From contig OY282494.1 in assembly GCA_958296385.1 (NCBI GenBank), positions 2,393,537-2,457,536 on the forward strand: DNA of 64,000 nt, in the 5' to 3' direction. Below are positions 12,463 to 30,364 of this stretch, one piece after another. The DNA is from an uncultured Dehalococcoidia bacterium. Lineage in GTDB: Bacteria; Chloroflexota; Dehalococcoidia; Lucifugimonadales; UBA3495. The notes under the pieces are model-generated. The model worked only from the letters and a program-made list of their open reading frames with translations, was not told the DNA's origin and made no database searches. The position numbers and the translations under genes were made by a program. Positions within the stretch are counted from its first letter, which is position 1. Each line of letters opens with the position of its first letter.

Positions 12463-12471
12463 GCCAACCCG

Positions 12472-14401: not shown

Positions 14402-14516
14402 CCCCTAATGTCATTCTGAGCGCAGCGAAGAATCTCGAAAGCGTAGCAACGGCGTTGCCCCCAAAGCGTGCGTTTCCCCATCGAGATTCTTCGCTGCGCT
14501 CAGAATGACATTGGGG
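14402..14516. repeat. Palindromic intergenic repeat, full copy
   Basis: Same arms as the other copies; the left arm reads TCTCGAAAGC rather than TCTCGATAGC. It fills the gap between the converging ggt and hpt stop codons, which suggests a role as a two-way terminator. Confidence 0.9.
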
Positions 14517-14530
14517 AGGAAGGCCCGCCC

Positions 14531-15073
14531 CTACGCAAAATAGTACACCGCCGGCAGCCCCCGATACCCCTCGTCAAAGTCCATCCCGTACCCCACCACA
14601 AAGTAATCCGGTATCGTAAAGCCCACGTAGTCGCACCGGACGTCGGCCTCCCGCCGCTCCGGTTTGTCCAGCAGCGCGCACAGCCGCACCGATGCCGGAT
14701 TTAGCTCCCGCAGATGCGCCCGCACCGCCGCCAGCGTGTGCCCCGTATCCGCAATGTCCTCCACCACCAGCACGTGCCGCCCGGCGATGTGTTCGGCCCG
14801 CATCCCCCCGTCAATGCGCACCGTGCCGGATGATTCCGTCCCGCCGCCGTAGCTGCTGGCCCGCAGGTAATCCACCCGGTGCACCGCCGCCCGCAGCTGC
14901 CGCATCAAGTCGGACGCAAACGGCACCGCCCCTTTCAGCAGGCAGACCACCGCCAGCCCGCTGTCCCCATAATCCCGGTCAATCTCCGCGGCCACCCGGG
15001 CCACGCCGGCCCGCAGCTCCGATTCCGACAGCAGCAGCGTCAGGCCGGCATCGGCGTCGGCTGGCACGGTCAA
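14531..15073 (-). CDS. hpt: Hypoxanthine phosphoribosyltransferase
   Basis: Purine salvage: converts hypoxanthine or guanine plus PRPP to IMP or GMP. The PRPP loop HVLVVEDIADTGHTL is at residues 100-114. VCLLKGAVPFASDLMRQ and DYVGFTIPDYFVVGYGMD are further family signatures. 180 residues, normal. The start is probably TTG at 15073 (GTG at 15067 is possible). It lies 11 bases after gyrB and is probably cotranscribed with it. Confidence 0.95.
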   Translation of the reverse strand: MTVPADADAGLTLLLSESELRAGVARVAAEIDRDYGDSGLAVVCLLKGAVPFASDLMRQLRAAVHRVDYLRASSYGGGTESSGTVRIDGGMRAEHIAGRHVLVVEDIADTGHTLAAVRAHLRELNPASVRLCALLDKPERREADVRCDYVGFTIPDYFVVGYGMDFDEGYRGLPAVYYFA

Positions 15074-15084
15074 CCCGCCCGCCG

Positions 15085-17106
<2,022 letters not shown>

Positions 17107-17162
17107 TTACGCTGTAAAGCCGGTGCATCCGGCGCCGGATATGTTGTACCCTTGCATCCTTT

Positions 17163-17168
17163 ATTATA
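17163..17168 (-). promoter_or_regulatory. Candidate -10 box for gyrB
   Basis: TATAAT on the minus strand, 105 bases before the gyrB start, without a clear -35. The 305 bases at 17059-17363 hold this promoter region and the tandem repeat; no gene is seen. Confidence 0.4.
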
Positions 17169-17258
17169 CCGAATATCCCATCAGATTACTACTGAAACCC
17201 GATGCAGGATTTCGCCATTTGGACGCGCGTTTCAATGCCGGTCCGTCAGATGAGAGCT

Positions 17259-17364
17259 CACGGGCGCAAGTTCACGGGCCCCGGTTCACGGGCCCCGGTT
17301 CACACGGGCCCCGGTTCACACGTGCCCCGGTTCACACGTGCCCCGGTTCACACGTGCCCCGGTT
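17259..17364. repeat. Seven-unit minisatellite (14-16 bp)
   Basis: Units start at 17259, 17273, 17287, 17301, 17317, 17333 and 17349. The first three are 14 bp (type CACGGGCCCCGGTT; the first is divergent) and the last four 16 bp (type CACACGTGCCCCGGTT, the fourth unit still with GGG). The array ends exactly at the stop of the minus-strand gene beginning at 17364. Confidence 0.92.
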
Positions 17365-18032
17365 CAGAGAATACGACGGTACACGCCCGGCGACCCGTCG
17401 GCGAAACGCATCTGCGGCTGCACCTGTGCGTTCCAGACCGGCGTCACCGCATCGCGCACCGCCTGCCATTCCGGACTGTCCGCTACCTCCGGCCCGGCGC
17501 ACTCGTGCACGGTGGTGTACTTCGGTTCGCCCATCACCGCCGTCCAGCGCCGCCCCCGGATGTACCCCGGAATGTTGTAATACAGCGGCAGCCGTTCCGC
17601 ATCGTAGGCCGCGTTGAAAGCGTCCTCCAGCTCCGCCGGCGTTTCCATCCGCCCCACCAGCAAAGCCGGCGCCATCCCCGCGCTGGCCGTCTCCGCCGGC
17701 ACCTCCGCCGGATACAGCAGCCGGTACAGATTGCGAATGTAGGTAGTCCCGATAACCCCCGGCGACATCCGCTGCGACCACTCGGTAGGGTTGTTCAGAT
17801 GATATTGCCAGGCATCGGAACGCCAGGTTTCCGCAGATTCAATCTCGTAGCAGGCCAGATACTTCGGCCCGCCCCGCGCCGCAACGTACCGCGCCGCATC
17901 CAGCACCCCCGGAATCGCCAGCCGCTCCGGAATGTGTTCCTCATCGTACCAGCGGTTAAACTCATCCTCCAGCTCAACCGGCACGTCAACGTAAACCATC
18001 AACAAACCGCGCCCCTTTTTAGCCCTGTCCAT
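17364..18032 (-). CDS. Duplicated dimeric alpha-beta-barrel protein
   Basis: 222 residues made of two related ferredoxin-like halves. Half 1 (residues about 8-95) has LLMVYVDVPVELEDEFNRWY, then EEHIPERLAIPGVLDAARY and GGPKYLACYEIES. Half 2 (about 120-205) has ALLVGRMETPAELEDAFNAAY, ERLPLYYNIPGYIRGRRW and GEPKYTTVHEC. This is the D-x-E-x-x-x-W/A-Y-D-E-E-H-x-P-x-R pattern of EthD/DUF4286-like dimeric alpha-beta-barrel proteins. The tandem copy would give a monomer imitating the family's dimer. No catalytic claim can be made. The ATG at 18032 follows AGGGGGTG at about 8 bases. Monocistronic; function unknown. Confidence 0.75.
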   Translation of the reverse strand: MDRAKKGRGLLMVYVDVPVELEDEFNRWYDEEHIPERLAIPGVLDAARYVAARGGPKYLACYEIESAETWRSDAWQYHLNNPTEWSQRMSPGVIGTTYIRNLYRLLYPAEVPAETASAGMAPALLVGRMETPAELEDAFNAAYDAERLPLYYNIPGYIRGRRWTAVMGEPKYTTVHECAGPEVADSPEWQAVRDAVTPVWNAQVQPQMRFADGSPGVYRRIL

Positions 18033-18168
18033 CAAAATGCACCCCCTGTCCGGTAGCCTTTCCCTTTAGATAGCGTCCCATTGCCGGCAGTCTAATCAGC
18101 CCACCGCCGGCCGTTCTGCAATTCCTACTGCAATTCCGTCATTCCTACTGCCGTTCTGCTATTCCTAC

Positions 18169-18201
18169 TGTCATTCTGAGCGCAGCGCAGAATCTCGATG
18201 G
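18169..18201. repeat. Half copy of the palindromic repeat
   Basis: One arm only, with GCGCAG instead of GCGAAG in the middle. It follows short repeated ATTCCTACTG words (18121, 18141, 18161). The remainder of 18036-18334 holds no gene that I can recognise. Confidence 0.75.
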
Positions 18202-18334
18202 GATAGCGCCCACTTTGATAGAAACGCCCGCAACCCGGTCAACAAAATCCCTCGCAAGCATCACGCCCCCTCCCCCGATACAGCCCGGCGCCGTCCCCAA
18301 ATAGCCCAGCGTCAAACTACCGGAAATCACAACC

Positions 18335-18760
18335 CTACGCCTCGCCATCGTGATACCACTCCCCCGACAGCAGGCTGTCGATCGCAATCCGCATCGGCTT
18401 GAATAGCGGCTCCGGCAGATTACGCAGCGCAAACCACCCGTAATCGCCAAAAGAACCGTCAGATTCCGCTGGCACAGGTTCCTGATTGCCAATCTCCCCC
18501 AGAAACTCCACGTCCACGTAATGCCGCCCGTACTCAACGATGTTGCTAACGCACAGCGGCCGCAGACTGCCCACCGACACGCCCAGCTCCTCGAGCGCCT
18601 CCCGCCGGGCGCAGTCCTCCAGCGTCTCGCCATACTCCAGATGCCCGCCGGCCGACCCCCACGAGGCCGCCCCGTGCGCGCCCGTCCGCTGCGCCAGAAA
18701 CACCCGGCCGGCGCGCAAAAACACCACCCCCACCCCAACCAACGGACGTTCCCCCGGCAT
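18335..18760 (-). CDS. NUDIX hydrolase
   Basis: Cleaves nucleoside diphosphates linked to another moiety. The Nudix box runs from GGHLEYGETLEDCARREALE to ELGV, matching G-x5-E-x7-R-E-x2-E-E. VGVGVVFLRAGRVFLAQR is the preceding strand pair. About 141 residues, typical of MutT-size proteins. The frame is open upstream, but MPGERPLVGVG at 18760 is the natural start. An extended -10 (TGC-TATACT, 18773-18781) puts the transcript start at about 18766, exactly on an in-frame GTG, so the mRNA may be leaderless. Substrate not predictable. Confidence 0.85.
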   Translation of the reverse strand: MPGERPLVGVGVVFLRAGRVFLAQRTGAHGAASWGSAGGHLEYGETLEDCARREALEELGVSVGSLRPLCVSNIVEYGRHYVDVEFLGEIGNQEPVPAESDGSFGDYGWFALRNLPEPLFKPMRIAIDSLLSGEWYHDGEA

Positions 18761-18772
18761 ACTCACCGCCGC

Positions 18773-18781
18773 AGTATAGCA
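18773..18781 (-). promoter_or_regulatory. Extended -10 promoter giving a near-leaderless NUDIX mRNA
   Basis: TGC-TATACT on the minus strand; the expected start (about 18766) coincides with GTG 18766 and lies 6 bases before ATG 18760. Confidence 0.5.
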
Positions 18782-18820
18782 CACCAGCCACCCCGGCCCG
18801 ACGCCGCAGCAGCGCCCTTG

Positions 18821-19371
18821 CCCCCAAAGACACACCGAGGGGGTCTGGGGGAAATCATTTCCCCCAGCGTCACCCCCCCTTGCTCCCAAACGATACGCCG
18901 CCCCGTCAAAATCCCCCGCCAAATCCAAAAAATCAATGACACCGCCCTCTTTACAATCCGAATGTTCGTTCGCCATACTACATCAATCGGGCAAATCAAG
19001 CAACCCCCGGCCTCCAGCCGTTCCCGGCCAGGAACGTTCCCTGGGGAACCGGAGCCACCACACCGCTAGCAAAACCGCCGGAGATTCAAGTCAAAAACGG
19101 CCAGTCAGCAAAAATCGCAATCGGCAAGGGTAGTCCCATCCCCGCTTACACGGCGTGGGCTGCCTCCGCAGGGTATCGAGCTTCAGCCCGCGTGCTGCCT
19201 CTCATTAGGGCAGGACACGTAAAATGAAGGTCCAAAATAGTTGCGTACCCACCTCCGGCCGTAGGGCTGACAACGACTTGAATCTCCGACACCAAACCAA
19301 CCAAACCGAACCCACCGCCCGATACCGATAGCCCGATACCAACCGGAGAATCCACCATGCCACCATCCAAC
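18821..19371. repeat. About 550-bp intergenic repeat, copy A
   Basis: The reverse complement of this segment matches 32413-32974 over nearly its full length with small indels. From the left it contains the palindrome GGGGGAAATCATTTCCCCC, a variable zone (18880-19075), then a highly conserved core bounded by perfect 13-bp inverted repeats GGAGATTCAAGTC (19080-19092) and GACTTGAATCTCC (19275-19287), then a GATACCGATA-rich tail. No open frame with credible coding features is shared intact by both copies. It fills most of 18761-19517. Confidence 0.9.
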
Positions 19372-19445
19372 CGCTCCCCCCCTCTTTTGTCATACCAGGC
19401 GCCCACTCCGGGAGCAGCTTACCCCGCCGGCCGCACGCCGGGAGG

Positions 19446-19475
19446 TTGTTGTTGCTTGTTGCCCGGTGCTAGACT
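19446..19475 (+). promoter_or_regulatory. Promoter for the inositol-monophosphatase-family gene
   Basis: TTGTTG (19446-19451), 18 bases, then TAGACT (19470-19475) with TGC before it. Start near 19482, 36 bases before the ATG. Confidence 0.4.
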
Positions 19476-19517
19476 GCTCCGGTTGCAATTCTGCGCCTTG
19501 CCGGAGGTATCCTTTTT

Positions 19518-20360
19518 ATGTCCCAGCCCGCACCGGACGAACAACCCGAACGGCTCCCGCTATCCGCAACCGGCCGCACTGCTTTGGCCGTGTGTGAAAC
19601 TGCGGCCCGCCGCGCTGGCGAACTGGCCCTGCGCCGGTTCCGCACCGATATTGAGGTCAACTTCAAGGGGCGTGCCAACGTAGTAACCGACGTTGACCTG
19701 GCCTGCGAGCGCGTCATCCTTGATTACGTCCGTGCCGAGTTCCCCGATTTCGGCGTGCTGTCCGAGGAGTCGGAGCCGGTAGCCGGTGCATCCCCTTATA
19801 CGCTGGTCGCCGACCCCATCGACGGCACCCGCAACTTCGCCGAGGGCATCCCCCATTTCTGCGTCGTAGTGGCCATCGCCCGGGGCGATGAGGTACTGGC
19901 CGGCGTTACCTACGACCCGGTGCGCGATGAAGCCTTTGCCGCTCAAAAAGGCCAGGGCGCAACCCTCAACGGCGAGCCGATCACCGTATCCGACCGCCAG
20001 GACATCGGCGAGGCCGTGCTGGGCTTTGACCTCGGCTACGACTTTGAGCAGGCCGGCAAGCTTTTGCAGATGGCCAGCCGCCTCTGGCCCCGCACGCAAA
20101 GCTACCGCCTCATGGGTTCCAGCGCCCTCAGCATCGCCTACGCCGCCAGCGGCCGCATCGACCTCTACTTCCATCACAGCCTGTCGCCCTGGGACATCGC
20201 ATCCGGCATCCTGCTGGCCCACGAAGCCGGCGCCCAGGTCCTCGACCAGCGCACCCTCCAACCCGCCAACCTGTTCTCCCCCGGCCTGATTATCTCCAAC
20301 CAAACGCTAGTCCAACAATTCCTGGATATGACCGACGGCGACCCGTGGCGCAGCCTGTGA
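19518..20360 (+). CDS. Inositol monophosphatase family phosphatase (SuhB-like)
   Basis: Mg2+-dependent phosphatase of the inositol-phosphatase/FBPase/CysQ fold. Metal ligands are visible as SEESEP (Glu), ADPIDGTRNF (Asp-Ile-Asp) and SPWDIASGILLAHEAG (second Asp). 280 residues, normal. ATG at 19518 with GGAGG 11 bases upstream. Substrate may be inositol-1-phosphate, histidinol phosphate or PAP. PAP is worth keeping in mind because the same region encodes PAPS production, but sequence alone cannot decide. Single gene, ending just before a palindrome repeat. Confidence 0.88.
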   Translation: MSQPAPDEQPERLPLSATGRTALAVCETAARRAGELALRRFRTDIEVNFKGRANVVTDVDLACERVILDYVRAEFPDFGVLSEESEPVAGASPYTLVADPIDGTRNFAEGIPHFCVVVAIARGDEVLAGVTYDPVRDEAFAAQKGQGATLNGEPITVSDRQDIGEAVLGFDLGYDFEQAGKLLQMASRLWPRTQSYRLMGSSALSIAYAASGRIDLYFHHSLSPWDIASGILLAHEAGAQVLDQRTLQPANLFSPGLIISNQTLVQQFLDMTDGDPWRSL

Positions 20361-20410
20361 ACGTGCCTGCTACGACACCAAGTCTCCCATACCGTCGCTG
20401 TCATTCTTTC

Positions 20411-20520
20411 CCCCAATGTCATTCTGAGCGCAGCGAAGAATCTCGATAGCGTAGCAACGTCGTTGCACCCAAAGTGTGCGCTACGGCATCGAGATTCTTC
20501 GCTGCGCTCAGAATGACAGT
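20411..20520. repeat. Palindromic intergenic repeat, full copy
   Basis: Arms from 20415 (AATGTCATTCTGAGCGCAGC) to 20519, ending GAATGACAGT; the centre contains GTGTGCGCTACGGCATC. It lies between two converging genes. Confidence 0.9.
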
Positions 20521-20540
20521 TTGTTATGTGACAGCGTGTG

Positions 20541-21323
20541 TTAGGAACTCCCGTACCGGGCCAGAAACTGCCGGATGGCGGCGAAGTATTGCCGGTAGCC
20601 CACGTACATCAAATCGTTATGCCCCGCTCCGGGAATAATCTCCAGATGTTTCGCGGCGGTGTGCATCTTGTCGTGCATATCAACCGCATCCCGCAGCGGC
20701 GCCGTTTCGTCCCACTGCCCGTGAATCACCAGCGCCGGTATGTTGATGGAGTAGGCTTTGGCGTGATAGGCGGCCTCCAGCGCGGCAATCGCTTCCGGCG
20801 CCAGCCCCTCGGCAAACCGCCCCAGGTTGGGCCGCCCGCTCTCAATGATGACGCCGTTGATACGCTCCGACGCATTGGCCGCCAGCTCAAACGCGGCGTG
20901 CCGCCCCATTGAACGCCCCATCACGTACAGCGGCCCGGTGAACTGCAACGACCGCATCGTATCCCGCAGCCAGTCCAGCGCCTGGTGAGCATCGGACAGC
21001 ATCGTGCCGAAAGCCGGCTCGCCCCCCGATGCGCCGTAGCCCCGGTAATCTACGATGAAAAAGTTGGCCCCAATCTCGTTGTAATGCGGCGCGATACTGT
21101 CATAGCCCGGCACGGTTTCGCCGTTCCCGTAGAAAAACAGCACCGTCGGATTAGCCCGCCCCACCGCAAAAAACCGGGACGACAACGCCACTCCCTCCGC
21201 AACCGTAATCCCGTAATCCACCGCCCCCTCCGGCGTCTCCGTCCAATGACGCCGGGGATAAAACGAACGCGCCGACGCCTCCGGGCTGTCCAGCATCGTG
21301 TAGTCAACAGCGTCCATGTCCAT
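20541..21323 (-). CDS. Alpha/beta hydrolase
   Basis: 260 residues of alpha/beta-hydrolase fold resembling the BAAT/BEM46-like group. Nucleophile elbow VMGRSMGRHAAF (Ser near residue 139), oxyanion strand VLFFYGNGETV, acid in IHGQWDETAPL, and His in IPGAGHNDLMYVG. No signal peptide. ATG at 21323 is 5 bases after GGGAGGG; the ATG at 21317 is 11 bases away and possible. Esterase or peptidase substrate unknown. Confidence 0.82.
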   Translation of the reverse strand: MDMDAVDYTMLDSPEASARSFYPRRHWTETPEGAVDYGITVAEGVALSSRFFAVGRANPTVLFFYGNGETVPGYDSIAPHYNEIGANFFIVDYRGYGASGGEPAFGTMLSDAHQALDWLRDTMRSLQFTGPLYVMGRSMGRHAAFELAANASERINGVIIESGRPNLGRFAEGLAPEAIAALEAAYHAKAYSINIPALVIHGQWDETAPLRDAVDMHDKMHTAAKHLEIIPGAGHNDLMYVGYRQYFAAIRQFLARYGSS

Positions 21324-21436
21324 TCCATCCCTCCCGCCGGCGGCGCCCCGGCAACCCCGGCATTATACTACGCCCCTCGCCAACCCGCCCCGATATGGTA
21401 ACCTTTCCCAAACCCTGCCTTTGAGGTCTGTCCGCT

Positions 21437-22603
21437 ATGACTATTGCCACCCGTATGAGCCGCCTGGGAACCGAAAGCGCCTTTGAGGTGCTGGCCAAAG
21501 CCCGCGCCCTGGAAGCCCAGGGCCGCGAAATCATCCACCTTGAAATCGGCGAACCCGACTTTGAGACGCCCCCGCACATCGTCCAGGCCGGCGTGCAAGC
21601 GTTGCAGGACGGCTACACCCACTACGGCCCCACGCCCGGCCTGCCCGAACTGCGCCAGGCGGTGGCCCGCAACAGCCGCGAGGTGCGCGGCATTGACACC
21701 GATTGGGAGCAGGTCGTCGTTACCCCCGGCGCCAAGCCCATCATGTTCTACGTCCTGCTGGCCATCGCCGAGGCCGGCGCCGAAGTCATCTACCCCAACC
21801 CCGGCTTTCCCATCTACGAGTCCATGATTGAGTTCAGCGGCGCCAAAGCCGTCCCGATGCAGCTCCACGAAGACCGGGCCTATCATCCCGACCTGTCCCA
21901 ACTGCCCGAACTGGTCAACGAGCGCACCCGCCTGCTCATCATCAACTCGCCGGAGAACCCCTGCGGTTCCGCCCTGACCCTGACCGAGCTGGAAACCATC
22001 GCCGCCGTGGTGCGCCGCCACCCCGATATGTACGTGATGTCCGATGAAATCTACAAGGACATCCTCTATTCGGGCGAGCATCACAGCATCGCCGCCCTGC
22101 CCGGTATGGCCGAGCGCACCATCATCCTCGACGGTTTCTCCAAGAGCTACGCCATGACCGGCTGGCGTCTGGGCTACGGCATCCTGCCCGATGAGCTGGT
22201 GCCCCACGTGTCGCGCCTGGCCACCAACAGCGTGTCCTGCGCCGCATCCTTCAGCCAGATTGCCGGCGTCGCCGCGCTAGACGGCCCCCAGGACGCCGTG
22301 CAGGAGATGGCCGCCGAGTTCGCCCGCCGCCGCCGCCTCATCGCCGACGGCCTGGCGTCAATCCCCGGCGTCAACTGCCCGGAGCCGGAGGGCGCCTTCT
22401 ACGCCTTCCCCAGCATCAAGGACACCGGCCTCACCAGCGCCGAGTTCGAGGAGCGCGCCATGCAGGACGCCGGCGTAGCCCTCCTCTCCGGCGCCGCCTT
22501 CGGCGAATTCGGCGAAGGCTACGTCCGCCTGTCCTACGCCAACAGCCCGGAAAACATCACCAAAGCCCTCGAAAACCTGGACAAAATGGTCCGCGCCCTC
22601 TAA
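21437..22603 (+). CDS. Class I/II pyridoxal-phosphate aminotransferase
   Basis: PLP enzyme of the aspartate/tyrosine aminotransferase fold-type I family. IIHLEIGEPDFETPPHI begins the N-terminal arm. YGPTPGLPELRQAVA follows, then NSPENPCGSALT, YVMSDEIYKDI with the PLP-ring Asp, and the Schiff-base Lys in DGFSKSYAMTGWRLGY (near residue 240). The C-terminal Arg is in YVRLSYANS. 388 residues, normal. The donor and acceptor cannot be told from sequence; AspC-like with broad specificity is likely. It is followed after 30 bases by a Uma2 gene. Confidence 0.92.
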   Translation: MTIATRMSRLGTESAFEVLAKARALEAQGREIIHLEIGEPDFETPPHIVQAGVQALQDGYTHYGPTPGLPELRQAVARNSREVRGIDTDWEQVVVTPGAKPIMFYVLLAIAEAGAEVIYPNPGFPIYESMIEFSGAKAVPMQLHEDRAYHPDLSQLPELVNERTRLLIINSPENPCGSALTLTELETIAAVVRRHPDMYVMSDEIYKDILYSGEHHSIAALPGMAERTIILDGFSKSYAMTGWRLGYGILPDELVPHVSRLATNSVSCAASFSQIAGVAALDGPQDAVQEMAAEFARRRRLIADGLASIPGVNCPEPEGAFYAFPSIKDTGLTSAEFEERAMQDAGVALLSGAAFGEFGEGYVRLSYANSPENITKALENLDKMVRAL

Positions 22604-22633
22604 CCGCTCAACCACGACCAAAGGGGAAAGAGC

Positions 22634-23236
22634 ATGACAACGCAAACCAAACCCCGCCCGGCGATTGGCCTCGAATCAACCGGCCTCGAACCCCGCCGTT
22701 TCACCATAGCCGAATACTTCGCCATGGCCGAAGCGGGAATCCTGACAGAAGCAGACCGGGTAGAGCTCATTGATGGAGTAATCGTAGCCATGTCCCCCAT
22801 CGGCAACCCTCATATCGCCTCCGTTGACAAACTAACCAGGTTGATGGGTGAAGCCGTCGGGAGACGCGCAATCCTCCGGGTGCAAAGTCCCGTAACGCTG
22901 GATGAATACACAATGCCCGAACCCGACCTAGTAATCCTGCGCGAGCGCTCCGATTTTTACGCACACGAGGCCGCCGGCCCGGAGGACGTCTTGCTCCTCA
23001 TTGAGGTATCCGACAGCTCACTGAGCTACGACCGCAACGCGAAACTAGCCCTCTACGCCCGCTTCGGCATCCCCGAAGTCTGGATAACCGCCCTGCCCGA
23101 GCGCATAATGGAAGCCCACACCAAACCCGCCGCCGGCAGCTACACCCGCAAGCAAACCCTATCCCCCGGCGACACCATAACCCCCGAATGTTTCCCCGAC
23201 ATAACCATCCCAGTAGCCGAAATAATACCCGCCTAA
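22634..23236 (+). CDS. Uma2-family (DUF820) restriction-endonuclease-fold protein
   Basis: 200 residues of the PD-(D/E)XK-fold Uma2 family, abundant in Cyanobacteria and Chloroflexota. TIAEYFAMAEAGILTEADRVELIDG opens the family domain (written here in part: VELIDGVIVAMSPIG). EPDLVILRE supplies the Asp. LLLIEVSDSSLSYDRNAK supplies the E-x-K catalytic pair, and YARFGIPEVWI follows. ATG at 22634 follows GGGGAAAG. Function of the family in cells is not settled. Its DNA is still C-rich on the plus strand and it is the last gene left of the skew switch. A second, longer Uma2 protein is at 52095-52886. Confidence 0.88.
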   Translation: MTTQTKPRPAIGLESTGLEPRRFTIAEYFAMAEAGILTEADRVELIDGVIVAMSPIGNPHIASVDKLTRLMGEAVGRRAILRVQSPVTLDEYTMPEPDLVILRERSDFYAHEAAGPEDVLLLIEVSDSSLSYDRNAKLALYARFGIPEVWITALPERIMEAHTKPAAGSYTRKQTLSPGDTITPECFPDITIPVAEIIPA

Positions 23237-23411
23237 CCCACCAACGCCCCCTGCTGCCCGTACTTTATCGGATGCGGTCATCCGGCGTAAGCGAGGGCTG
23301 GCACTGGAAAAGGGCCAACCTAAAACGGAATGCCGCGTTCGGGACAGGCGGCCGTTGCAAAAGCACGCTGCCCGTTGTATGTTTAGATGTGGCTAGAAGG
23401 AGCGAGATGCT
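23237..23411. other. Noncoding pivot of strand composition
   Basis: Within this 175-base gap and the next gene the plus strand changes from C-rich to G-rich, and stays so on each side for more than 20 kb regardless of gene direction. No DnaA box cluster, AT-rich tract or obvious repeat is visible in the gap itself. Candidate replication origin, inversion edge or assembly joint. Confidence 0.5.
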
Positions 23412-23678
23412 ATGACTACTATGGACATTACAACGGCGCAAGTCGTCGGCGATTTGAGAGAAGCCGTCGGTGAACTGCGCGAGGGGCAACGTCAGCTTGA
23501 CGCGCGTATGGACCGCTTGGAATCTAACATTGACGCGCGCATTGACCGCCTGGAATCTAATGTTGACGCGCGTATGGGCCGCATGGACTCTAAGATTGAC
23601 CGCCTGATGTTCGTGGGCATTGGCATTATGGGCGCTACGATTGCCACTCTCGTGGCCACTTTGGTTGCGGCGCTTTAG
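23412..23678 (+). CDS. Small coiled-coil protein with C-terminal membrane anchor
   Basis: 88 residues. Residues about 14-65 form an uninterrupted heptad coiled coil built from 11-residue units such as RMDRLESNIDA, RIDRLESNVDA and RMGRMDSKIDR. The DNA repeats in steps of 33 bases. Residues 66-87 are one hydrophobic segment (VGIGIMGATIATLVATLVAAL), so the protein is tail-anchored with the coil in the cytoplasm. ATG at 23412 with AAGGAG at 9 bases. This architecture is common in Chloroflexota and Cyanobacteria and its role is unknown; it often sits next to Uma2 genes, as here. Confidence 0.8.
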   Translation: MTTMDITTAQVVGDLREAVGELREGQRQLDARMDRLESNIDARIDRLESNVDARMGRMDSKIDRLMFVGIGIMGATIATLVATLVAAL

Positions 23679-23688
23679 CGGCGGTGGG

Positions 23689-24369
23689 TTAGTTTTCGTC
23701 GGGCCAGGTTTTGTTGCCGTAGTAGTTGGCGTCCCAGAATAGCTGTTCGTAGCGCAGGGTGGTTAGGAAGATTCGCTCCAGGTTGGCGGCTTTGGCGCTG
23801 TCGGCGCGGGCGCCGGCTTCGTTGAGGCGGGCGGTGAACCACTGTACTACTTCGCCCAGCACTTCGGGGCTGTGGATGTCAATCCAGTCTTGGTACACCT
23901 TGTTGCCGGGCTTTTGGCCGGAGTTAATCAGGCGGGTGGCCCAGTCCAGGTAGGTGCCTTCGGTTACGTAGAACAGGGCAATCAAGTCGTCAAAATCGCC
24001 TTCCAGCGCGGTGCGTACCATGAAGTCGCCGAAACCCTGCGTTACCGGATTGGCCTCGGTTTCCCGGTACTGTTCGGCGGTTACGCCCAACTCTTGAAAG
24101 CCGTTCAGAAAGAGGTCGTTCTCGGCGGACAGAAAGTTGGCCAGGAAGCCGTCCAGACGGGCGCCGGCGTCGTAATCGGGGGCGGCTTTTGCGATGGCGA
24201 TGGCCGTCAGCTTGACCAAATCGCGGCAGAACACGTAATCCTGCCGGAAGTAGCTGCGGAACTTGGCGATGTCCAGACTGCCGTCGCCCATCTCCAGCAC
24301 GAAAGGATGGGTGACCATCGCCTCCCACTGGTCGTGATATTTGGCGCGCAAGTCATCGGCAAATGGCAT
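23689..24369 (-). CDS. tenA: TenA/THI-4 family protein
   Basis: All-helical TENA/THI-4 fold; classical members are thiaminase II enzymes that salvage thiamine pyrimidine precursors. FRSYFRQDYVFCRDLVKL matches the family's F-x-x-Y-x-x-Q-D-Y-x-F motif with the Asp, and YVTEGTYLDWATRL near residue 137 resembles the Y-x-E-x-x-Y-x-x-W signature. ANLERIFLTTLRYEQLFWDANY is the C-terminal helix with the Glu-x-x-FW motif. 226 residues, normal. GGAG lies 8 bases before the ATG. No other thi genes are near, so the substrate may differ. Confidence 0.85.
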   Translation of the reverse strand: MPFADDLRAKYHDQWEAMVTHPFVLEMGDGSLDIAKFRSYFRQDYVFCRDLVKLTAIAIAKAAPDYDAGARLDGFLANFLSAENDLFLNGFQELGVTAEQYRETEANPVTQGFGDFMVRTALEGDFDDLIALFYVTEGTYLDWATRLINSGQKPGNKVYQDWIDIHSPEVLGEVVQWFTARLNEAGARADSAKAANLERIFLTTLRYEQLFWDANYYGNKTWPDEN

Positions 24370-24396
24370 AGTAAAACTCCAGACAGATTAGTCAAT

Positions 24397-24831
24397 TCAG
24401 ACGGATTCGGCCAGGCAGCGAAAGAAACGGTCCATCATTCCCTGGGCCACCGAGCCCATCATACGCTGGCCGACCCGCGCCACCGAGCCGCCAACCTGAC
24501 TGTCGGCCTCTACCTGCACCGTCGTTACGTTGTCGCCGGCCGGTATGAGGGTAACGGTGGCGGAGCCGTTGGCGAAGCCGATGCGGCCCGAACCTTCGAT
24601 GTTCAGCGTGTAGGAATGGGGCGGGTTCAGATTGGCCAGCTCGACTACGGCGTCGTACTGGCCGCCTACCGGGCCAATGCGGATGTCAACGGTTGCCCGG
24701 TAGCGGTTGGGGCCGTCGGCCTCCATCCGGCGGCAGCCGGGGATGCAGCCGGCCAGCACGTCGGGGTTCATCAGCGCATCCCAAACCGCCTGCGACGGCT
24801 TGGCGAAGTGGTAATCGGCGGAAAGTTGCAT
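24397..24831 (-). CDS. CoxG-like SRPBCC protein
   Basis: 144 residues of the CO-dehydrogenase subunit G (CoxG/PF06240) type with a START/SRPBCC fold. It begins with PSQAVWDALMNPDVLAGCIPGC, the usual x-VW-x-x-L-x-D-P-x-x-L-x-x-C-I-P-G motif (quoted here as VWDALMNPDVLAGCIPGC). In carboxydotrophs CoxG helps membrane attachment, but many relatives occur without coxSML, as here, and may bind hydrophobic ligands. A minus-strand TATACT at 24841-24846 places the transcript start within about 3 bases of the ATG, so the mRNA may be leaderless. Confidence 0.85.
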   Translation of the reverse strand: MQLSADYHFAKPSQAVWDALMNPDVLAGCIPGCRRMEADGPNRYRATVDIRIGPVGGQYDAVVELANLNPPHSYTLNIEGSGRIGFANGSATVTLIPAGDNVTTVQVEADSQVGGSVARVGQRMMGSVAQGMMDRFFRCLAESV

Positions 24832-24884
24832 AGTGCAGAGAGTATAACAGGGATGACCAGCCGCTGCGCGCGGCGCCGGGCGGG

Positions 24885-25415
24885 TTAGCGGTGCCAGCCC
24901 ATTCCTTTGTACATTCCCCGCAGGAACGCAATCTGCCCGCCGTGCGACACGCAGTCCCAGGTCATTTGCCCCAGGGCGGCGGCGACGGAACGGGGTTCGG
25001 ATACCGGCGGGATAATCCGGGCCTGCTTCATCTGCGCCTCGGTTAGCGAGGGCAGGTACTCGCGCAGCGCGGCGCGCACCTGCTCAAAGTACTCCATCTG
25101 CACGCTGCGGGCGGGGGGCTGCCAGTCGCACACCATCCGGTGCGTCCAGCCCAGCCCCCGGTTCTCGCCGTCGGCGGGCAGCGCGTAATGCCGCTCCCAC
25201 CCGCCGGTGTCCCACAGCTGCGGCAAGTCGCGCAGGCGGGTGTGGATAAAGGAATCAATCACCCGCGAAAGATGCCACAGAATCCAGGCCACCGAGTTGC
25301 AGTCGTCCGCCGGGATGCGCTGAAACTCGTCGTCGGACAGGTCTTTCAGGGCCAGGTCGATGGTGTTGAAGTTGTTCTCCAGAGCGGAGATAAGGCCGTC
25401 GGCTGCGGCGGGCAT
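24885..25415 (-). CDS. DinB-family metal-binding four-helix protein
   Basis: 176 residues of the DinB/YfiT four-helix bundle. The metal-binding His triad is visible as LWHLSRVIDSF (His near 48) and SHGGQIAFLRG (His near 157), with a third likely near the ERHYALP segment. GGAGG is 6 bases before the ATG. In the family, members act as thiol-dependent transferases or stress proteins. Function here is unknown. It is followed on the same strand by coxG-like and tenA genes with 50-base or smaller gaps. Confidence 0.82.
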   Translation of the reverse strand: MPAAADGLISALENNFNTIDLALKDLSDDEFQRIPADDCNSVAWILWHLSRVIDSFIHTRLRDLPQLWDTGGWERHYALPADGENRGLGWTHRMVCDWQPPARSVQMEYFEQVRAALREYLPSLTEAQMKQARIIPPVSEPRSVAAALGQMTWDCVSHGGQIAFLRGMYKGMGWHR

Positions 25416-25496
25416 GGAGCGCCTCCCCGGTGTGTGGCAAGTCGGATGCGGGTAAGTCGGTATCCGGATGGTTGGTATGTGGCAGTTGGATGGCGG

Positions 25497-26042
25497 TTAG
25501 ACGATTTCGGGCTGGACGCCTTCGGGCAGGTCAACCTCAAAGGCGGAGAGAATCTGGCCGACCAGCATATAGTGTCCGATGAGGGCGGTGATGCCGACGG
25601 TTTTCTCGGTGCCGAAGTGGTTGGACACGGCGTTAAAGGTGGCGTCGCTAATCCGGTGATTCTGGGACAGCTCCTGCACGAACTTGACCAGTTCGGCCTC
25701 GATGCCGCTCATGCCCTCCGGCGCCTTGCCGGTGGCGATGGCTTCGACTACTTCGTCGGATACGCCGGCCTGGCGGGCCAGACGGGCGTGGGCGGAGAAC
25801 TCGTACTGCTGGCGAATTTCGCGGGCGGTGGCGCAGATGATTATTTCGCGCTGGGCCTCGGTGATGTCCAGGTCAAAGCGGACGAAAGTGCCGGTGTGGG
25901 CCACGCGGGAGGCCAGGTCGGGGCTGTGCAGCAGGACGCCGTAAGGCCCCCGCACACTGCCACGGCTGCTGGCGATGGAATCAAAGAACCCCTGATGCTC
26001 CGGGGCAAGCTGTTCGCGGGTAACGTCGTTCAATCGGGCCAT
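25497..26042 (-). CDS. Carboxymuconolactone-decarboxylase-like (AhpD-fold) protein
   Basis: 181 residues of the CMD/AhpD fold. LDITEAQREIIICATAREIRQQYEF is the typical helix pair (key part: REIIICATAREIRQQYE), followed by HARLARQAGVSDEVVEAI. The redox C-x-x-C of AhpD is absent: the place is occupied by REIRQQYEFSAH, so peroxidase activity of the AhpD kind is not expected. The His of SAH may be catalytic, as in CMD lactone enzymes. AAGGAG precedes the ATG by about 9 bases. First gene of a four-gene minus-strand run; 26043-26270 holds short ACGGATGTTGCTGG duplications and the tRNA promoter. Confidence 0.8.
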   Translation of the reverse strand: MARLNDVTREQLAPEHQGFFDSIASSRGSVRGPYGVLLHSPDLASRVAHTGTFVRFDLDITEAQREIIICATAREIRQQYEFSAHARLARQAGVSDEVVEAIATGKAPEGMSGIEAELVKFVQELSQNHRISDATFNAVSNHFGTEKTVGITALIGHYMLVGQILSAFEVDLPEGVQPEIV

Positions 26043-26220
26043 TTTGCTGCGCTCCTTGCTTGATGGATGGACGGATGTTGCTGGACGGATGTTGCTGGAT
26101 GGATGCTGGGGACGTCAATTCAATATGCCGCATCAATATACCGCCGGGAGATGGTGCGGGGCAAGCCCACGTTTCGGCCCGGCCCGGCACAGCCGCTATC
26201 AGAATGGCCGGGGGTATGCT

Positions 26221-26249
26221 ATGACAACGGCGGCTAATGGTGGTAAAAT
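26221..26249 (+). promoter_or_regulatory. Promoter of tRNA-Val
   Basis: ATGACA (26221-26226), 17 bases, TAAAAT (26244-26249) preceded by TGG (extended -10). The predicted start is about 15 bases before the tRNA. Confidence 0.6.
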
Positions 26250-26270
26250 GTTTTTGCGCCAAGCGGCTGT

Positions 26271-26347
26271 GGGCGATTAGCTCAGTTGGTTAGAGTACTT
26301 GCTCGACACGCAAGAGGTCAGTGGTTCGAGTCCACTATCGCCCACCA
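26271..26347 (+). tRNA. tRNA-Val (GAC) with C33
   Basis: Acceptor GGGCGAT/ATCGCCC, D-stem GCTC/GAGT, anticodon stem CTTGC/GCAAG, T-arm AGTGG-TTCGAGT-CCACT, encoded CCA. The anticodon loop reads TCGACAC: anticodon GAC, but position 33 is C where nearly all elongator tRNAs have U. All stems are intact, so it looks like a working gene otherwise. No terminator is seen directly after it. Confidence 0.93.
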
Positions 26348-26605
26348 TTTCATGTTAATGTCATTGGTCAAACTTACCGGAATGTGCATCTGCTGCCGCG
26401 CGCCGGCTGATTGGCCAGGCGGTTGCCGGGAGTGTCAATTCTCGTATAATGCGGTTTGCCGTGCTTGGCACGAGGCGCGTTAACTATGGTAAAGTAGTCG
26501 TGCTTCTGGGGAATCAGCCTTTCTGCCGTTAGTGGGGGCGCTTGCACCGCACCGGGCATCTTTGCTAACTGCTCAACCATCCCGCCGGCCGATTCGGGAA
26601 CATCC

Positions 26606-27799
26606 ATGATAAGACCAATAGCGGACTCATCCAGCGAAACGTTAACGGCCAGCCCCCCCGCCGCCAGATCCGTCAACGGCGCGCACAGCGCAGTAAAGCA
26701 GGGCGGAACGCGGCTTGTTGAGCGGCACAAATCGGCATATCCGGCATCCCCTGGCCTGTTTCGGAACGGCCCGCCAAGCGTATCGGTGATAATTCCGGCG
26801 CGCGATGCCGAAGCAACCATCGTATCTACCCTTGACGCGGTATATGCTCAGGATTATCCGGGGCCTATCGAGGTGATTGTCGCTGACGGCGACGTTGCTC
26901 CGGCGATGTCGGAGCTAATCCGGGAGTGTCATCCGGAGGTCAAGGTGATACCGAATCCGGAGTGCAGCCTGGTGCCTGGCGCCAACGCCGCTTTTAGCCT
27001 GGCGACCGGCGATATAATCGTGCGGTGCGACGCCCATACGACCTTTCCGCCCGGCTACCTGACGCACGCCATCGCGACGCTGGAGCGCACCGGGGCGGGC
27101 AACGTGGGCGGGCGGCAGCTGGCCGAGGGAACTACTTTTTTTGAGCGTACCGTTGCGATGGCGATGACTACTCCGCTGGGCGTGGGCGACGCCCGTCACC
27201 GTCTGGGCGGCAAGGCCGGCCCCACCGACACGGCCTTTCTGGGCGTGTTCTCCCGTGAAACGCTGGAGGAGACGGGGGGCTACGACCCTACTGTGGTGCG
27301 GAACGAGGATTACGATTTCAACTACCGATTGCGCAAGCAGGGCAAGACGGTTTGGTTTGACCCGGAGTTGGTGGTGAGCTACCGCCCCCGCGGTTCGTTC
27401 CGGGCGCTGGCGATGCAGTATTTCAACTACGGGCGGGGGAAATCGCGGGTGATAATGAAGCATCCGGCCTCAACGCGCCCGCGCCATCTGGCGGCTCCCG
27501 GATTGGTGTGCGGCCTGGTGGCCGGGGCCGTGCTGGCGGTGGCCGGGGTCTGGTGGCTGCTGGCGGCGCTGCTGCTGGCCTACGTTCTCACCATCGCCGG
27601 CGGGTCGGTTGTCGTGGGCCTGCGGCGGCGGAGTCTGGCGGCCGTCCTTTTGCCGCCGGTGCTGGCAATCATGCACTTGACTTGGGGAGTCGGGTTTTTC
27701 ATTCCGGACCGTGCCCCCCCCCCCCCCGCATTTAAGGGGTTATTCAAAAGGTCAGGGCCATTGAACAGAAAAGACGGGGGCGATTCAACCCAGCAGTGA
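26606..27799 (+). CDS. Family 2 glycosyltransferase with C-terminal membrane segments
   Basis: Processive-type GT2 glycosyltransferase like ExoA of succinoglycan synthesis, making a polysaccharide at the membrane. The GT-A domain starts near residue 58 with VSVIIPARDAEATIVSTLDA. The nucleotide-binding Asp is in VIVADGD, the D-x-D-like motif in VRCDAHTTFPPGYL, and NEDYDFNYRLRKQG is the E-D acceptor motif. Residues about 298-375 carry two or three membrane segments. 397 residues. Residues 1-55 look unstructured, and the real start may lie downstream of the ATG at 26606, which lacks a good ribosome site. A 14-C tract lies in codons for APPPPA near the end. First gene of a four-gene polysaccharide locus. 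Confidence 0.88.
   Translation: MIRPIADSSSETLTASPPAARSVNGAHSAVKQGGTRLVERHKSAYPASPGLFRNGPPSVSVIIPARDAEATIVSTLDAVYAQDYPGPIEVIVADGDVAPAMSELIRECHPEVKVIPNPECSLVPGANAAFSLATGDIIVRCDAHTTFPPGYLTHAIATLERTGAGNVGGRQLAEGTTFFERTVAMAMTTPLGVGDARHRLGGKAGPTDTAFLGVFSRETLEETGGYDPTVVRNEDYDFNYRLRKQGKTVWFDPELVVSYRPRGSFRALAMQYFNYGRGKSRVIMKHPASTRPRHLAAPGLVCGLVAGAVLAVAGVWWLLAALLLAYVLTIAGGSVVVGLRRRSLAAVLLPPVLAIMHLTWGVGFFIPDRAPPPPAFKGLFKRSGPLNRKDGGDSTQQ
27714..27727 (+). repeat. Homopolymer of 14 C inside the GT2 gene
   Basis: The tract codes for four prolines at about residue 370. With 14 C the frame continues 24 codons to the stop at 27799. With 15 C it meets TAA three codons after the tract. With 13 C it ends after about a dozen altered codons. 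All three retain the catalytic domain and membrane segments. Confidence 0.9.
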
Positions 27800-27844
27800 C
27801 GCCGGGCGGCGTGAGGTTCGGTTCCGCGTCCGGTTGCCCCGTCC

Positions 27845-29239
27845 GTGCCATACTCCCATGCCATGCTCCCACCTGAAACAGAAACGGCGGATGCGCTGCA
27901 AGTTCCGGGGACGACCGGGGGAGAGGATGTCTCCGTAATGTTCGCAACCCTGGCCGGCATGGCCGGGTTGACGCTGCTGATACAGGCGCTGCTGGCCTAC
28001 CTGCTGCTGCCGGAAGGCCGGGGTGCCTACGCCATTTGCATCGTGTTCGGCACGGTGCTGGGTTTGATTTGCACACCGGGCGCGCAGCAGGGGACGCAAT
28101 ACTTTGTCGCCGCGCAGCGGATGAGCGTATCGCAGGGTGTGTCCTCGGCGCTGATAATCAGCATCGCCGGCGGGGGATTGGCGGCTGCGCTGGCGTTGCC
28201 GCTGATTTACAGCGACTTGGGATTTTTCCAAAAGGCGGATACGCATACGTTCCTGCTGTCGCTGTCGCTGGCGCCGCTTACCGCCATCTCCATCGCGCTG
28301 GACCATCAGATTGTCGCGCTCCGGCGGTTCCGGCGTCTGGCGGTGTTCTCGGTGCTCCGCATTGCGGCGACGGCGCTGTTGCTGCCGGTTCTCGTGCGGG
28401 GCGCGGGGCTGGGGGTGGATGGCGCCATCATCGCCTTTGCCGCCGGGCATGGCGTTATGATTGCCGCCATACTGCTGTACCTGCAACGGCGGTGCGGGCT
28501 GGCCTTTGCGCTGCCGGTCCGCGCGAATCTCGGACGGGTTATCGGCTACGGGTTGAAGTACCACGTGGCACGGCTGGGCAACGCCGTTGAGCCGCATTTT
28601 GGCGTCATCATCCTGGGTCTGCTGGCAAGCCAGGCCGAGATTGGGCTGTTTGCGGCGGCCATTGCGCTGATGCTGGGATTTATGCTGGTGTCCAACGCCG
28701 TCGGCAACGCGCTGTTCCCCCGCGTGGCGGGCGCGGAGCGGGCGGCGACGGTTGCGCTGTGCCTGCGGCTGGTGGGGATTGCTACTGCGCTGGCGATGCT
28801 GGCGATGCTGGCCATCAGCGGGCCGCTGGTGCGGCTGCTGCTTTCGGACGCCTTTGCGCCGGCGGCGCCGCTGCTGTGGATTATGGCGCCGGGGATACTG
28901 GCCTATGCGCTTTCGGGAATACTGATGACCCACTTCAAGGGGGCCAACCGGCCGCAAGTCTGCTCGTGGGCGGTGTTGCTGGGGCTGTGCGCCAACCTGG
29001 GCGGGCTGCTGCTGCTCTACCCGCAACTCGGCGTAGCGGCGGCGGCGTGGGGCACGACCATCGGTATGATGTGCGGCTGTTTGTTCCTGGCGGTAGTATT
29101 CCACCGGACGACGCGGATGTCCGGGCTGGCAGTGTGGCTGCCGCGCCGGGCCGACGCCGGGTTTCTGTGGGCCGCCGGCCGGGCCGTGCTGACCCGCAAC
29201 GCCGCCGAGAAATCCGCGGCGCCGCTGCGTTCCAACTGA
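27845..29239 (+). CDS. Polysaccharide flippase (Wzx/MATE-like)
   Basis: About 464 residues with 12-14 hydrophobic segments, of the MOP-superfamily polysaccharide transporter type that flips lipid-linked sugar units across the inner membrane. VSVMFATLAGMAGLTLLIQALLAYLLLPEGRGAYA-like N-terminal helix pair (key part: LLPEGRGAYAICIVFG) is typical, as is GLLASQAEIGLFAAAIALM in the middle. The first codon may be GTG 27845 or ATG 27863; neither has a clear ribosome site, so translation may be coupled to the GT2 gene 46 bases upstream. Place in the locus fits a Wzx/Wzy pathway. Confidence 0.82.
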   Translation: MPYSHAMLPPETETADALQVPGTTGGEDVSVMFATLAGMAGLTLLIQALLAYLLLPEGRGAYAICIVFGTVLGLICTPGAQQGTQYFVAAQRMSVSQGVSSALIISIAGGGLAAALALPLIYSDLGFFQKADTHTFLLSLSLAPLTAISIALDHQIVALRRFRRLAVFSVLRIAATALLLPVLVRGAGLGVDGAIIAFAAGHGVMIAAILLYLQRRCGLAFALPVRANLGRVIGYGLKYHVARLGNAVEPHFGVIILGLLASQAEIGLFAAAIALMLGFMLVSNAVGNALFPRVAGAERAATVALCLRLVGIATALAMLAMLAISGPLVRLLLSDAFAPAAPLLWIMAPGILAYALSGILMTHFKGANRPQVCSWAVLLGLCANLGGLLLLYPQLGVAAAAWGTTIGMMCGCLFLAVVFHRTTRMSGLAVWLPRRADAGFLWAAGRAVLTRNAAEKSAAPLRSN

Positions 29240-29279
29240 CTGGCCAATCCGGGATTGACCGTTGACCGATTCAGAGAAC

Positions 29280-30353
29280 ATGGCGCCGCGCATCCTGCTC
29301 ATCGCTCCGGTACAGCGGGCCGGGGCGTCCGCGACCAACGTTGTTGGGGGCAACAAGGTTATGGCCGACGAGCAGGTGCGGGAGTTGGGGATGCGCGGGT
29401 TTGGCGTGGACGTCATTGACACTTCGGGGGGCGTTACTAACCTGCCGGGCTGGAAACTGCGGGCGGTGCGGCTGGCCCGGTTTCTGCGGGTAATCTGGGG
29501 GGTTGCCCGCAAGATATGGTATTGCGACGTGGTGTTTCTGATTATTGCGCCCTATTCGGCGCTGAGTTTGGCGTCGTTGCTGTGGGTCATCAGCACGCTG
29601 GCCCGGCGGCCGCTGGTGGTGCGTATTACCGGGGGCGATATGATGCTGGATTACGACGGCTACGGCAGGCTGGCGCGCTGGCTGGCGGAACGTACTTATA
29701 TGCGTGCGGCGCTGGTGTACGTGGAGACGGAGTATTTGCAGCGCAACTTTGCCGGCCGGGGCAACTTTCGCTGGTTTCCGAACACGCGGGATGTTGCGGC
29801 GCCGGCAGCGGAGGGGCGCAATCGGGTGGAGAAACTGATATTCGTGGCCCGGCTGGATATGGACAAAGGGCTGGCCGAGGCGCTAGAGGCGGGCCGCAAT
29901 CTGCCGGAGAACTGCCAGCTTAACGTATTCGGGCCGGGTATGTCGGACACGGATTTTAGCCTGTTTGAGGGGCATCCCCGGGCCAGTTACGGCGGGGTGC
30001 TGGCGCCGTGGGAGATACCGCAGATGATGGGGGAACACGACTTGCTGGTGTATCCGAGCTACTACCGGAGTGAGGGCTACCCCGGCGCAATTCTGGAGGC
30101 GTTTCAGTGCGGCCGGCCGGTGATAGCGGCTAAGTGGGGCGGCGTTACGGAGCTGGTGGAGCACGAAACCAGCGGGCTGCTGGTGGAACCGCGTTCATCC
30201 GCAGAGGTTAAAGCGGCGATTGAGCGGCTGCTGCACGACCCGGAGCTGTACCGGCGGCTGTGTGATGGCGCAAAGCGGCGGGGCGATTACTTCCGCAGCG
30301 GCCGGTGGTACGACAGCGCAGCCGATGACTTGCGCCGGCTGTGCCGCAAGTAG
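29280..30353 (+). CDS. Family 4 glycosyltransferase
   Basis: 357 residues with a GT-B fold. N-terminal MAPRILLIAPVQRAGASATN begins a Rossmann half. The C-terminal half carries RVEKLIFVARLDMDKGLAEAL and the GT4 E-x7-E motif in SEGYPGAILEAFQCGRPVIA, followed by TELVEHETSGLLVEP. It is a cytoplasmic or peripheral membrane enzyme adding a sugar from a nucleotide donor. ATG 29280 is chosen as the natural N-terminus; a TTG at 29262 is in frame. Downstream gene starts 11 bases after the stop. Confidence 0.88.
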   Translation: MAPRILLIAPVQRAGASATNVVGGNKVMADEQVRELGMRGFGVDVIDTSGGVTNLPGWKLRAVRLARFLRVIWGVARKIWYCDVVFLIIAPYSALSLASLLWVISTLARRPLVVRITGGDMMLDYDGYGRLARWLAERTYMRAALVYVETEYLQRNFAGRGNFRWFPNTRDVAAPAAEGRNRVEKLIFVARLDMDKGLAEALEAGRNLPENCQLNVFGPGMSDTDFSLFEGHPRASYGGVLAPWEIPQMMGEHDLLVYPSYYRSEGYPGAILEAFQCGRPVIAAKWGGVTELVEHETSGLLVEPRSSAEVKAAIERLLHDPELYRRLCDGAKRRGDYFRSGRWYDSAADDLRRLCRK

Positions 30354-30364
30354 GCCGGTTTGCG

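What the first reader, a model, noticed from the sequence alone, without database searches (positions are those of the whole stretch)
22600..23700. Sharp strand-composition switch at about 23.3 kb: possible replication origin
To the left (1-23.2 kb) the plus strand is C-rich for genes on both strands (argC, ggt, gyrB and hpaB alike). From about 23.4 kb on it is G- and T-rich through to 64 kb. A C-to-G change along the plus strand is the cumulative-skew minimum seen at bacterial origins. gyrB lies 6 kb away. Against oriC: no dnaA, no DnaA-box cluster and no AT-rich unwinding tract in the 175-bp gap. The alternatives are a large inversion edge or an assembly chimera.
Basis: partly seen in the sequence, partly recalled or inferred. 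Interest (0 to 1): 0.8.

Follow-up and report, generated by a model that had tools for sequence, protein, structure and literature searches.

The report
Sawtooth skew suggests many replication origins
The composition switch at 23.27 kb is real, but it is one of about 20 such switches on this marine (SAR202-type) bacterial chromosome, whose sawtooth pattern suggests that the chromosome is copied from many start points rather than one, which would be rare in bacteria.

Summary
The switch is real. Cumulative GC skew has its window minimum at 23,269. All 17 genes to the left are C-rich at fourfold sites whatever their strand, and 31 of 35 to the right are G-rich; intergenic DNA agrees. It is not the single oriC: it is one of about 12 major minima (18-20 sharp up-jumps) in the 2.46 Mb read contiguously; it is not the lowest, dnaA lies 2.2 Mb away, and there is no DnaA-box cluster.

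Along the chromosome the skew jumps up sharply and falls back gradually (20 sharp up-jumps against 6 down). Simulated inversion mosaics never gave this asymmetry (0 of 1,500). An aminotransferase beside the switch is strongly skewed here (-0.51) but nearly neutral in congeners, so the skew arose in this lineage. A 66-copy oriented repeat points with the local skew in 62 copies. dnaN sits at another strong up-jump.

Best reading (confidence about 0.55): many fairly fixed initiation zones with broad termination zones, this being the strongest; gene order is also heavily shuffled. Multi-origin replication is known in some cyanobacteria; I found no report for Chloroflexota. Rearrangement or assembly error is less likely but not excluded without reads, which were unavailable.

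The parts
23237..23411 (.). Intergenic gap holding the switch point (cumulative GC minimum 23,269; least-squares change point about 23,264)
   Evidence: about 57% GC, no AT-rich tract, no DnaA-box cluster
1..23269 (.). C-rich arm (inferred leftward-moving fork); continues left of the window to a broad maximum near C1:2,382,000
   Evidence: 17 of 17 genes negative at fourfold sites
23270..64000 (.). G-rich arm (inferred rightward-moving fork); skew fades towards the right end
   Evidence: 31 of 35 genes positive at fourfold sites
18797..19344 (-). Copy of the ~530-600-bp oriented structured repeat (G-rich strand on minus)
   Evidence: 66 copies in the genome read, 62 oriented with local skew
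32440..32973 (+). Second copy of the same repeat, opposite orientation, on the other side of the switch
20395..20534 (.). Palindromic MITE-like repeat (about 126 places in the genome read), between two blocks that lie apart in congeners
12726..20360 (.). ggt - phosphoribosyltransferase - gyrB - inositol-phosphatase-like block, kept together in congeners (gyrB 15085-17079, -)
21437..23236 (+). Aminotransferase (21437-22603) and Uma2-family gene (22634-23236) directly left of the switch; elsewhere in congeners
23412..23678 (+). Small coiled-coil/membrane ORF with 33-bp repeats, directly right of the switch
23689..24831 (-). TenA/PqqC-like and CoxG-like genes, first clearly G-skewed genes right of the switch; elsewhere in congeners

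Best explanation
The switch marks a replication initiation zone, one of roughly 20 on this 3.3-Mb chromosome. Forks leave the 23.27-kb region in both directions. Leading-strand mutation makes DNA G-rich on the right and C-rich on the left, whatever the gene direction (skew shown; fork direction inferred). Forks from neighbouring zones meet over a broad stretch rather than at a fixed point, so the skew fades gradually before the next sharp jump. The initiator is unknown: DnaA and dnaN are present, but DnaA boxes do not mark the jumps. A minority of sharp down-jumps (for example C1:1,118,000) are best read as recent rearrangements laid on top.
For: (1) Mosaic skew with 24 turning points in 2.46 Mb; the same sign in + genes, - genes and intergenic DNA in every domain. 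(2) Sawtooth: 20 sharp up-jumps against 6 down (p=0.009); skew stronger near minima than near maxima (15 of 22 flanks, p=0.014); step-like at minima, more gradual at maxima (p=0.0008-0.015). (3) Inversion-mosaic simulations never reach this up/down asymmetry (0 of 1,500); a multi-origin model with termination zones about 0.3 of the interval gives about 6 down-jumps and a gradient near 0.05 (observed 0.038). (4) Skew arose in this lineage: the aminotransferase is -0.51 here and -0.16 to +0.20 in 12 congeners, and small blocks from different ancestral places share the skew of their present domain. (5) Oriented repeat agrees with local skew 62/66 (p=5e-14) and in 8/8 congener copies with the element masked; transposons of several families are oriented by fork direction (PMC5371812). 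(6) dnaN, the classical oriC neighbour, lies at the up-jump C1:1,531,500-1,533,300. (7) Sum of fourfold-site up-jumps is about 10.7; one origin per round, even a wandering one, allows at most 2 (inference).
Against: No shared motif, AT-rich tract or DnaA-box enrichment at the jumps. A block-reversal test of the asymmetry was not significant (P 0.12-0.15). The observed gradient is weaker than pure linear dispersal predicts (0.12), and the fitted model gives fewer up-jumps (13-14) than observed (20). Some sharp down-jumps exist. All tests are post hoc on one genome, with 440 kb unread. Congeners have weak skew where I could read them. The model fit was found by varying parameters after seeing the data. 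No read-depth or fork-direction data.
Confidence: 0.55

Rival explanations
1. Rearrangement mosaic: a single-origin chromosome with strong skew was recently cut up by many large inversions and translocations, and this switch is one breakpoint.
For: Gene order is shuffled at about 1-8 kb scale against congeners, and the blocks on either side of the switch lie far apart in them. The genome carries many dispersed repeats. Some sharp down-jumps look like breakpoints (C1:1,118,000).
Against: Each inversion makes one up-jump and one equal down-jump; observed 20 against 6, never reached in 1,500 simulations. The switch is 4-9 kb from the nearest 530-bp repeats, not at them. The 62/66 repeat orientation and the in-lineage skew need every large inversion to be very recent; an inversion does carry repeat and skew together, so orientation alone does not exclude it.
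Confidence: 0.25
2. Assembly artefact: pieces of one genome, or of relatives, were joined in wrong orientation.
For: Metagenome-type single contig with 4.77% estimated contamination; no reads available to check the joins.
Against: Both sides carry the same lineage-specific 530-bp repeat and similar GC content. Random misorientation gives equal up- and down-jumps. The switch falls in unique DNA, not in a repeat. The letters read contain no Ns of their own (440,548 N = exactly the unread length).
Confidence: 0.1
3. Single origin that moves: one origin at a time, relocated repeatedly in evolution or differing among cells, leaving many superposed minima.
For: Gene order shuffling could move oriC; origins are sharp and termini diffuse, so jumps would be sharp upward and gradual downward, as seen.
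Against: For any mixture of one-origin states the fourfold-site up-jumps can sum to at most 2; those listed sum to about 10.7 (arithmetic and inference). Repeat orientation would be less faithful than 62/66.
Confidence: 0.05
4. This switch is the single chromosomal oriC, near gyrB.
For: It is the strongest up-jump examined and gyrB lies 6 kb away.
Against: Not the global minimum, many comparable minima, dnaA 2.2 Mb away, no DnaA-box cluster or AT-rich tract; dnaN sits at a different jump.
Confidence: 0.05

Closest known systems
Multi-origin cyanobacteria (Synechocystis PCC 6803, Nostoc PCC 7120, Cyanobacterium aponinum; PMC7198777)
   Same: Bacterial chromosome with irregular skew, no gene-strand bias (48.7% co-oriented here), and dnaA apart from dnaN; replication from multiple origins shown there by experiment.
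   Different: Here the skew is strong and locally coherent, with sharp repeated jumps; dnaA is present with all its domains; no replication experiment; different phylum (Chloroflexota).
Human skew N-domains (PMC3320577, PMC4729899)
   Same: Sharp upward skew jumps with gradual decline between them, explained by fixed initiation zones and dispersed termination.
   Different: Domains here are tens to about 240 kb, not megabases; decline partly plateau-like; many domains are irregular.
Canonical bacterial DnaA-oriC
   Same: Cumulative-skew minimum, gyrB within 6 kb; another jump lies at dnaN.
   Different: Many minima, no DnaA-box cluster, AT-rich tract or dnaA at the site.
Multi-origin archaea (Haloarcula hispanica, PMC3936714)
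   Same: Several origins on one circular chromosome.
   Different: Archaeal origins use Orc1/Cdc6-type initiators beside conserved repeats (own knowledge); this genome is bacterial, with dnaA, and no initiator gene or motif was found at the jumps examined.
IS200/IS605-type fork-oriented transposons (PMC5371812), compared with the 530-bp repeat
   Same: Orientation follows inferred fork direction; strong hairpins.
   Different: No Y1 transposase found in the genome and no Rfam match; the mobiliser is unknown.

Membership tests
Canonical bacterial oriC | Global cumulative-skew minimum with two replichores | tested here: not met
   24 turning points; lowest minimum of the contiguous part at C1:1,360,738
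Canonical bacterial oriC | Cluster of DnaA boxes | tested here: not met
   No cluster of 3 in 600 bp in 87% of the genome; one perfect box 2 kb away (25,241); no enrichment at jumps
Canonical bacterial oriC | AT-rich unwinding tract | tested here: not met
   Minimum GC 48% per 100 bp at the site; jumps not AT-richer than random places
Canonical bacterial oriC | Next to dnaA, dnaN or gyrB | tested here: inconclusive
   dnaA 2.2 Mb away, dnaN about 0.9 Mb away, gyrB 6 kb away
Multi-origin (N-domain type) replication | Several skew minima independent of gene strand | tested here: met
Multi-origin (N-domain type) replication | Sharp up-jumps, gradual down-slopes | tested here: met
   with one non-significant variant (P 0.12-0.15)
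Multi-origin (N-domain type) replication | Initiation measured at the jumps | not testable with these tools
   No reads or replication data held
Multi-origin (N-domain type) replication | Common origin motif or initiator site at the jumps (expected for defined bacterial or archaeal origins; not required of human N-domains) | tested here: not met
   No shared sequence or enriched k-mer near 14 jumps beyond dispersed repeats
Cyanobacteria-type DnaA-independent multi-origin replication | dnaA absent or dispensable | tested here: inconclusive
   dnaA present with N-terminal, ATPase and helix-turn-helix domains; dispensability cannot be tested here
Cyanobacteria-type DnaA-independent multi-origin replication | No CDS-strand bias, dnaA and dnaN apart | tested here: met
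   48.7% co-oriented; dnaA at 196 kb, dnaN at 1,532 kb
Cyanobacteria-type DnaA-independent multi-origin replication | High ploidy | not testable with these tools
   Needs cells or read data
Inversion mosaic | Equal numbers of sharp up- and down-jumps | tested here: not met
   20 against 6; 0 of 1,500 simulations
Inversion mosaic | Synteny with relatives broken at the jump | tested here: inconclusive
   Broken at the jump, but also at nearly every block border nearby

The most novel reading that the evidence does not exclude
A SAR202-type Chloroflexota bacterium replicates its 3.3-Mb chromosome from about 20 fairly fixed initiation zones without DnaA-box origins, with broad termination zones, giving a domain organisation like that of eukaryotic chromosomes; a structured repeat family records fork direction along it.
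Probability: 0.4. Interest if true: 0.9.

Novelty: new variant of a known kind. Interest (0 to 1): 0.72.

Why it matters
Whether bacteria other than a few cyanobacteria use many origins on one chromosome is open (posed in PMC4403523). If right, this genome gives mapped candidate initiation sites in an abundant marine lineage with cultured members (PMC10444878), so the question can be tested by read depth or marker frequency. It also warns that skew-based origin finding and single-peak growth-rate estimates would fail for such genomes.

Tried and rejected
Gene direction or transcription as cause: rejected. Single oriC: rejected. parS/ParB as origin marker: no parS sites in the 87% read and no ParB_N hit in the whole genome. 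Motif search at 14 jumps: nothing beyond dispersed repeats. The 113-bp palindromic repeat at jumps: not clearly enriched. Uma2 or coiled-coil paralogues at jumps: no. The 530-bp repeat as the origin itself: the jumps lie kilobases away. I first took that repeat for palindromic (my notebook entry still says so) because each copy matched two oppositely oriented queries; one search corrected this. The CRISPR array as cause of the 1,118-kb down-jump: it lies at 1,629-1,643 kb. Y1 transposase as mobiliser: none found. Known RNA family: none. Repeat orientation in congener G013 fits no two-replichore pattern (best 39 errors of 100) but is only weakly clustered (42 switches against 50 random, P=0.07). 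It is suggestive at most.

Full report
Setting. The window is C1:2,393,537-2,457,536 of a single 3,298,084-base contig (99.95% complete, 4.77% contamination). The best named relatives are Dehalococcoidia / SAR202-cluster Chloroflexota metagenome assemblies, 92-94% identical in the aminotransferase beside the switch. I read 2.86 Mb of the contig: 1 to 2,457,536 without gaps, then twenty 20-kb samples. Genes were called with a simple codon scorer of my own.

Observation. At fourfold-degenerate sites all 17 genes on the left are C-rich on the plus strand, and 31 of 35 on the right are G-rich, whatever their direction; intergenic DNA agrees. It is therefore a true strand asymmetry.

It is not the only one. 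Over 2.46 Mb the skew turns 24 times, and in each domain + genes, - genes and intergenic DNA share one sign. The lowest minimum is at 1,360,738, not here. Among 19 up-jumps examined, this one was the strongest.

Shape. In 8-kb steps the profile is a sawtooth: a sharp rise from negative to positive, then a slow fall through zero to negative, then the next sharp rise, clearest from 150 kb to 1,075 kb. I count 20 sharp up-jumps and 6 sharp down-jumps (p=0.009). Step fits beat linear fits far more at minima than at maxima (p=0.0008-0.015 by threshold). Skew is stronger near minima than near maxima (p=0.014). One variant, a block-reversal test, was not significant (P 0.12-0.15). These tests were chosen after seeing the profile.

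Rearrangement alone does not give this shape. Inverting a segment makes two equal and opposite jumps, so sharp ups and downs come in pairs. In 1,500 simulated mosaics over five settings none reached the observed excess. Models with 15 fixed origins give about 6 down-jumps and a gradient of about 0.05 (observed 6 and 0.038) when termination is spread over about 0.3 of each interval; pure linear dispersal gives too steep a gradient. They give 13-14 up-jumps against 20 observed, so more origins, or added rearrangements, are needed. I tuned these models after seeing the data.

Skew was acquired in this lineage. Against congeners, gene order is broken into small blocks: ggt to the inositol-phosphatase-like gene, the hydrolase, the aminotransferase with Uma2, TenA with CoxG, and the DinB/CMD pair each map to different places in congeners. 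Congeners share 3-19 kb around the aminotransferase with one another in most pairs but only 1.2-3 kb with this genome. The aminotransferase's fourfold skew is -0.51 here and -0.16 to +0.20 in 12 congeners. Blocks from different ancestral places now share their domain's sign.

An oriented repeat agrees. A repeat of about 530-600 bp, 66 copies in the letters read, is oriented with the local skew in 62 (p=5e-14). In the window its two copies flank the switch in opposite orientation. It is only statistically nearer to minima than to maxima, and the jumps are kilobases from it, so it is a marker rather than the origin. Its full-length form is absent from congeners, but a divergent family with the same conserved ends and long complementary outer arms occurs there; the eight copies I could read agree with the flanking skew with the element masked. 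Transposons of several families are oriented by fork direction (PMC5371812), so I read it as a fork-direction record. That is inference: no Y1 transposase was found, and an inversion would carry repeat and skew along together.

Replication genes. dnaA (196 kb) is not at a jump. dnaN (1,531,536-1,532,702) lies at the jump at 1,531.5-1,533.3 kb, so one jump may be the ancestral oriC; with about 18 jumps, a single named gene would lie within 1 kb of one by chance about 1.5% of the time. gyrB is 6 kb from the present switch. DnaA boxes are neither enriched nor clustered, and no ParB_N domain was found. Genes are not biased to the leading strand (48.7%).

One origin per round cannot explain this. 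For any mixture of single-origin states, fourfold-site up-jumps sum to at most 2. The 18 jumps listed sum to about 10.7, implying at least five initiation sites per round if no rearrangement contributes. This is inference, and the sum is inflated somewhat because jumps were selected for size.

Conclusion. I think it most likely (0.55) that the switch is an initiation zone, one of about 20. Main rivals: rearrangement mosaic (0.25), assembly error (0.10), moving single origin (0.05), single oriC here (0.05). Multi-origin replication is established in some cyanobacteria (PMC7198777) and was raised for bacteria generally (PMC4403523). I found no report for Chloroflexota in the held library; the one SAR202 cultivation paper mentions only anomalous GC-skew regions that often overlapped genomic islands (PMC10444878). 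Initiation itself is not shown.

Noticed in passing
window 18797-19344 (-), 32440-32973 (+); 66 copies in the genome read: Unclassified structured repeat, about 530-600 bp with a highly conserved core of about 280 bp that folds well (z -3.7 as RNA). A divergent family with shared conserved ends occurs in congeners; no Rfam match.
   Followed up: partly
congeners G013 and G012; loci L254-L259 and L145: 102 matches to the repeat's 21-base signature in one complete congener (47 forward, 55 reverse) against 13 in another, so copy number differs strongly within the genus.
   Followed up: partly
window 20395-20534: Palindromic MITE-like repeat (core TTCTTCGCTGCGCTCAGAATGAC), about 126 places in the genome read.
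   Followed up: partly
C1:1629347-1643403: Large CRISPR-like array, about 206 repeats with core TATCCCCGCGTGTGCGGGGGAAT (I-E-like from memory, not tested), orientation matching local skew.
   Followed up: no
C1:1531536-1532702: dnaN lies at a strong skew up-jump, a candidate ancestral oriC, without DnaA boxes.
   Followed up: partly
C1:1118000: Strongest sharp down-jump of skew (+0.2 to -0.3 within a few kb), in ordinary genes; probable recent rearrangement.
   Followed up: partly
window 45903-46703 and 56027-56689: Two + strand genes with skew opposite to their domain (dienelactone hydrolase family; unknown): possible recent arrivals.
   Followed up: no
window 13300-33200 against congeners: Gene order is shuffled in blocks of about 1-8 kb against all 13 same-genus genomes, which keep more order among themselves.
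   Followed up: partly
window 23412-23678: Small coiled-coil ORF with three 33-bp in-frame repeats beside a Uma2-family gene; 8 family members of each among the proteins called from this genome.
   Followed up: no
whole genome: No ParB_N domain found, although 10 of 14 control genomes have one.
   Followed up: no
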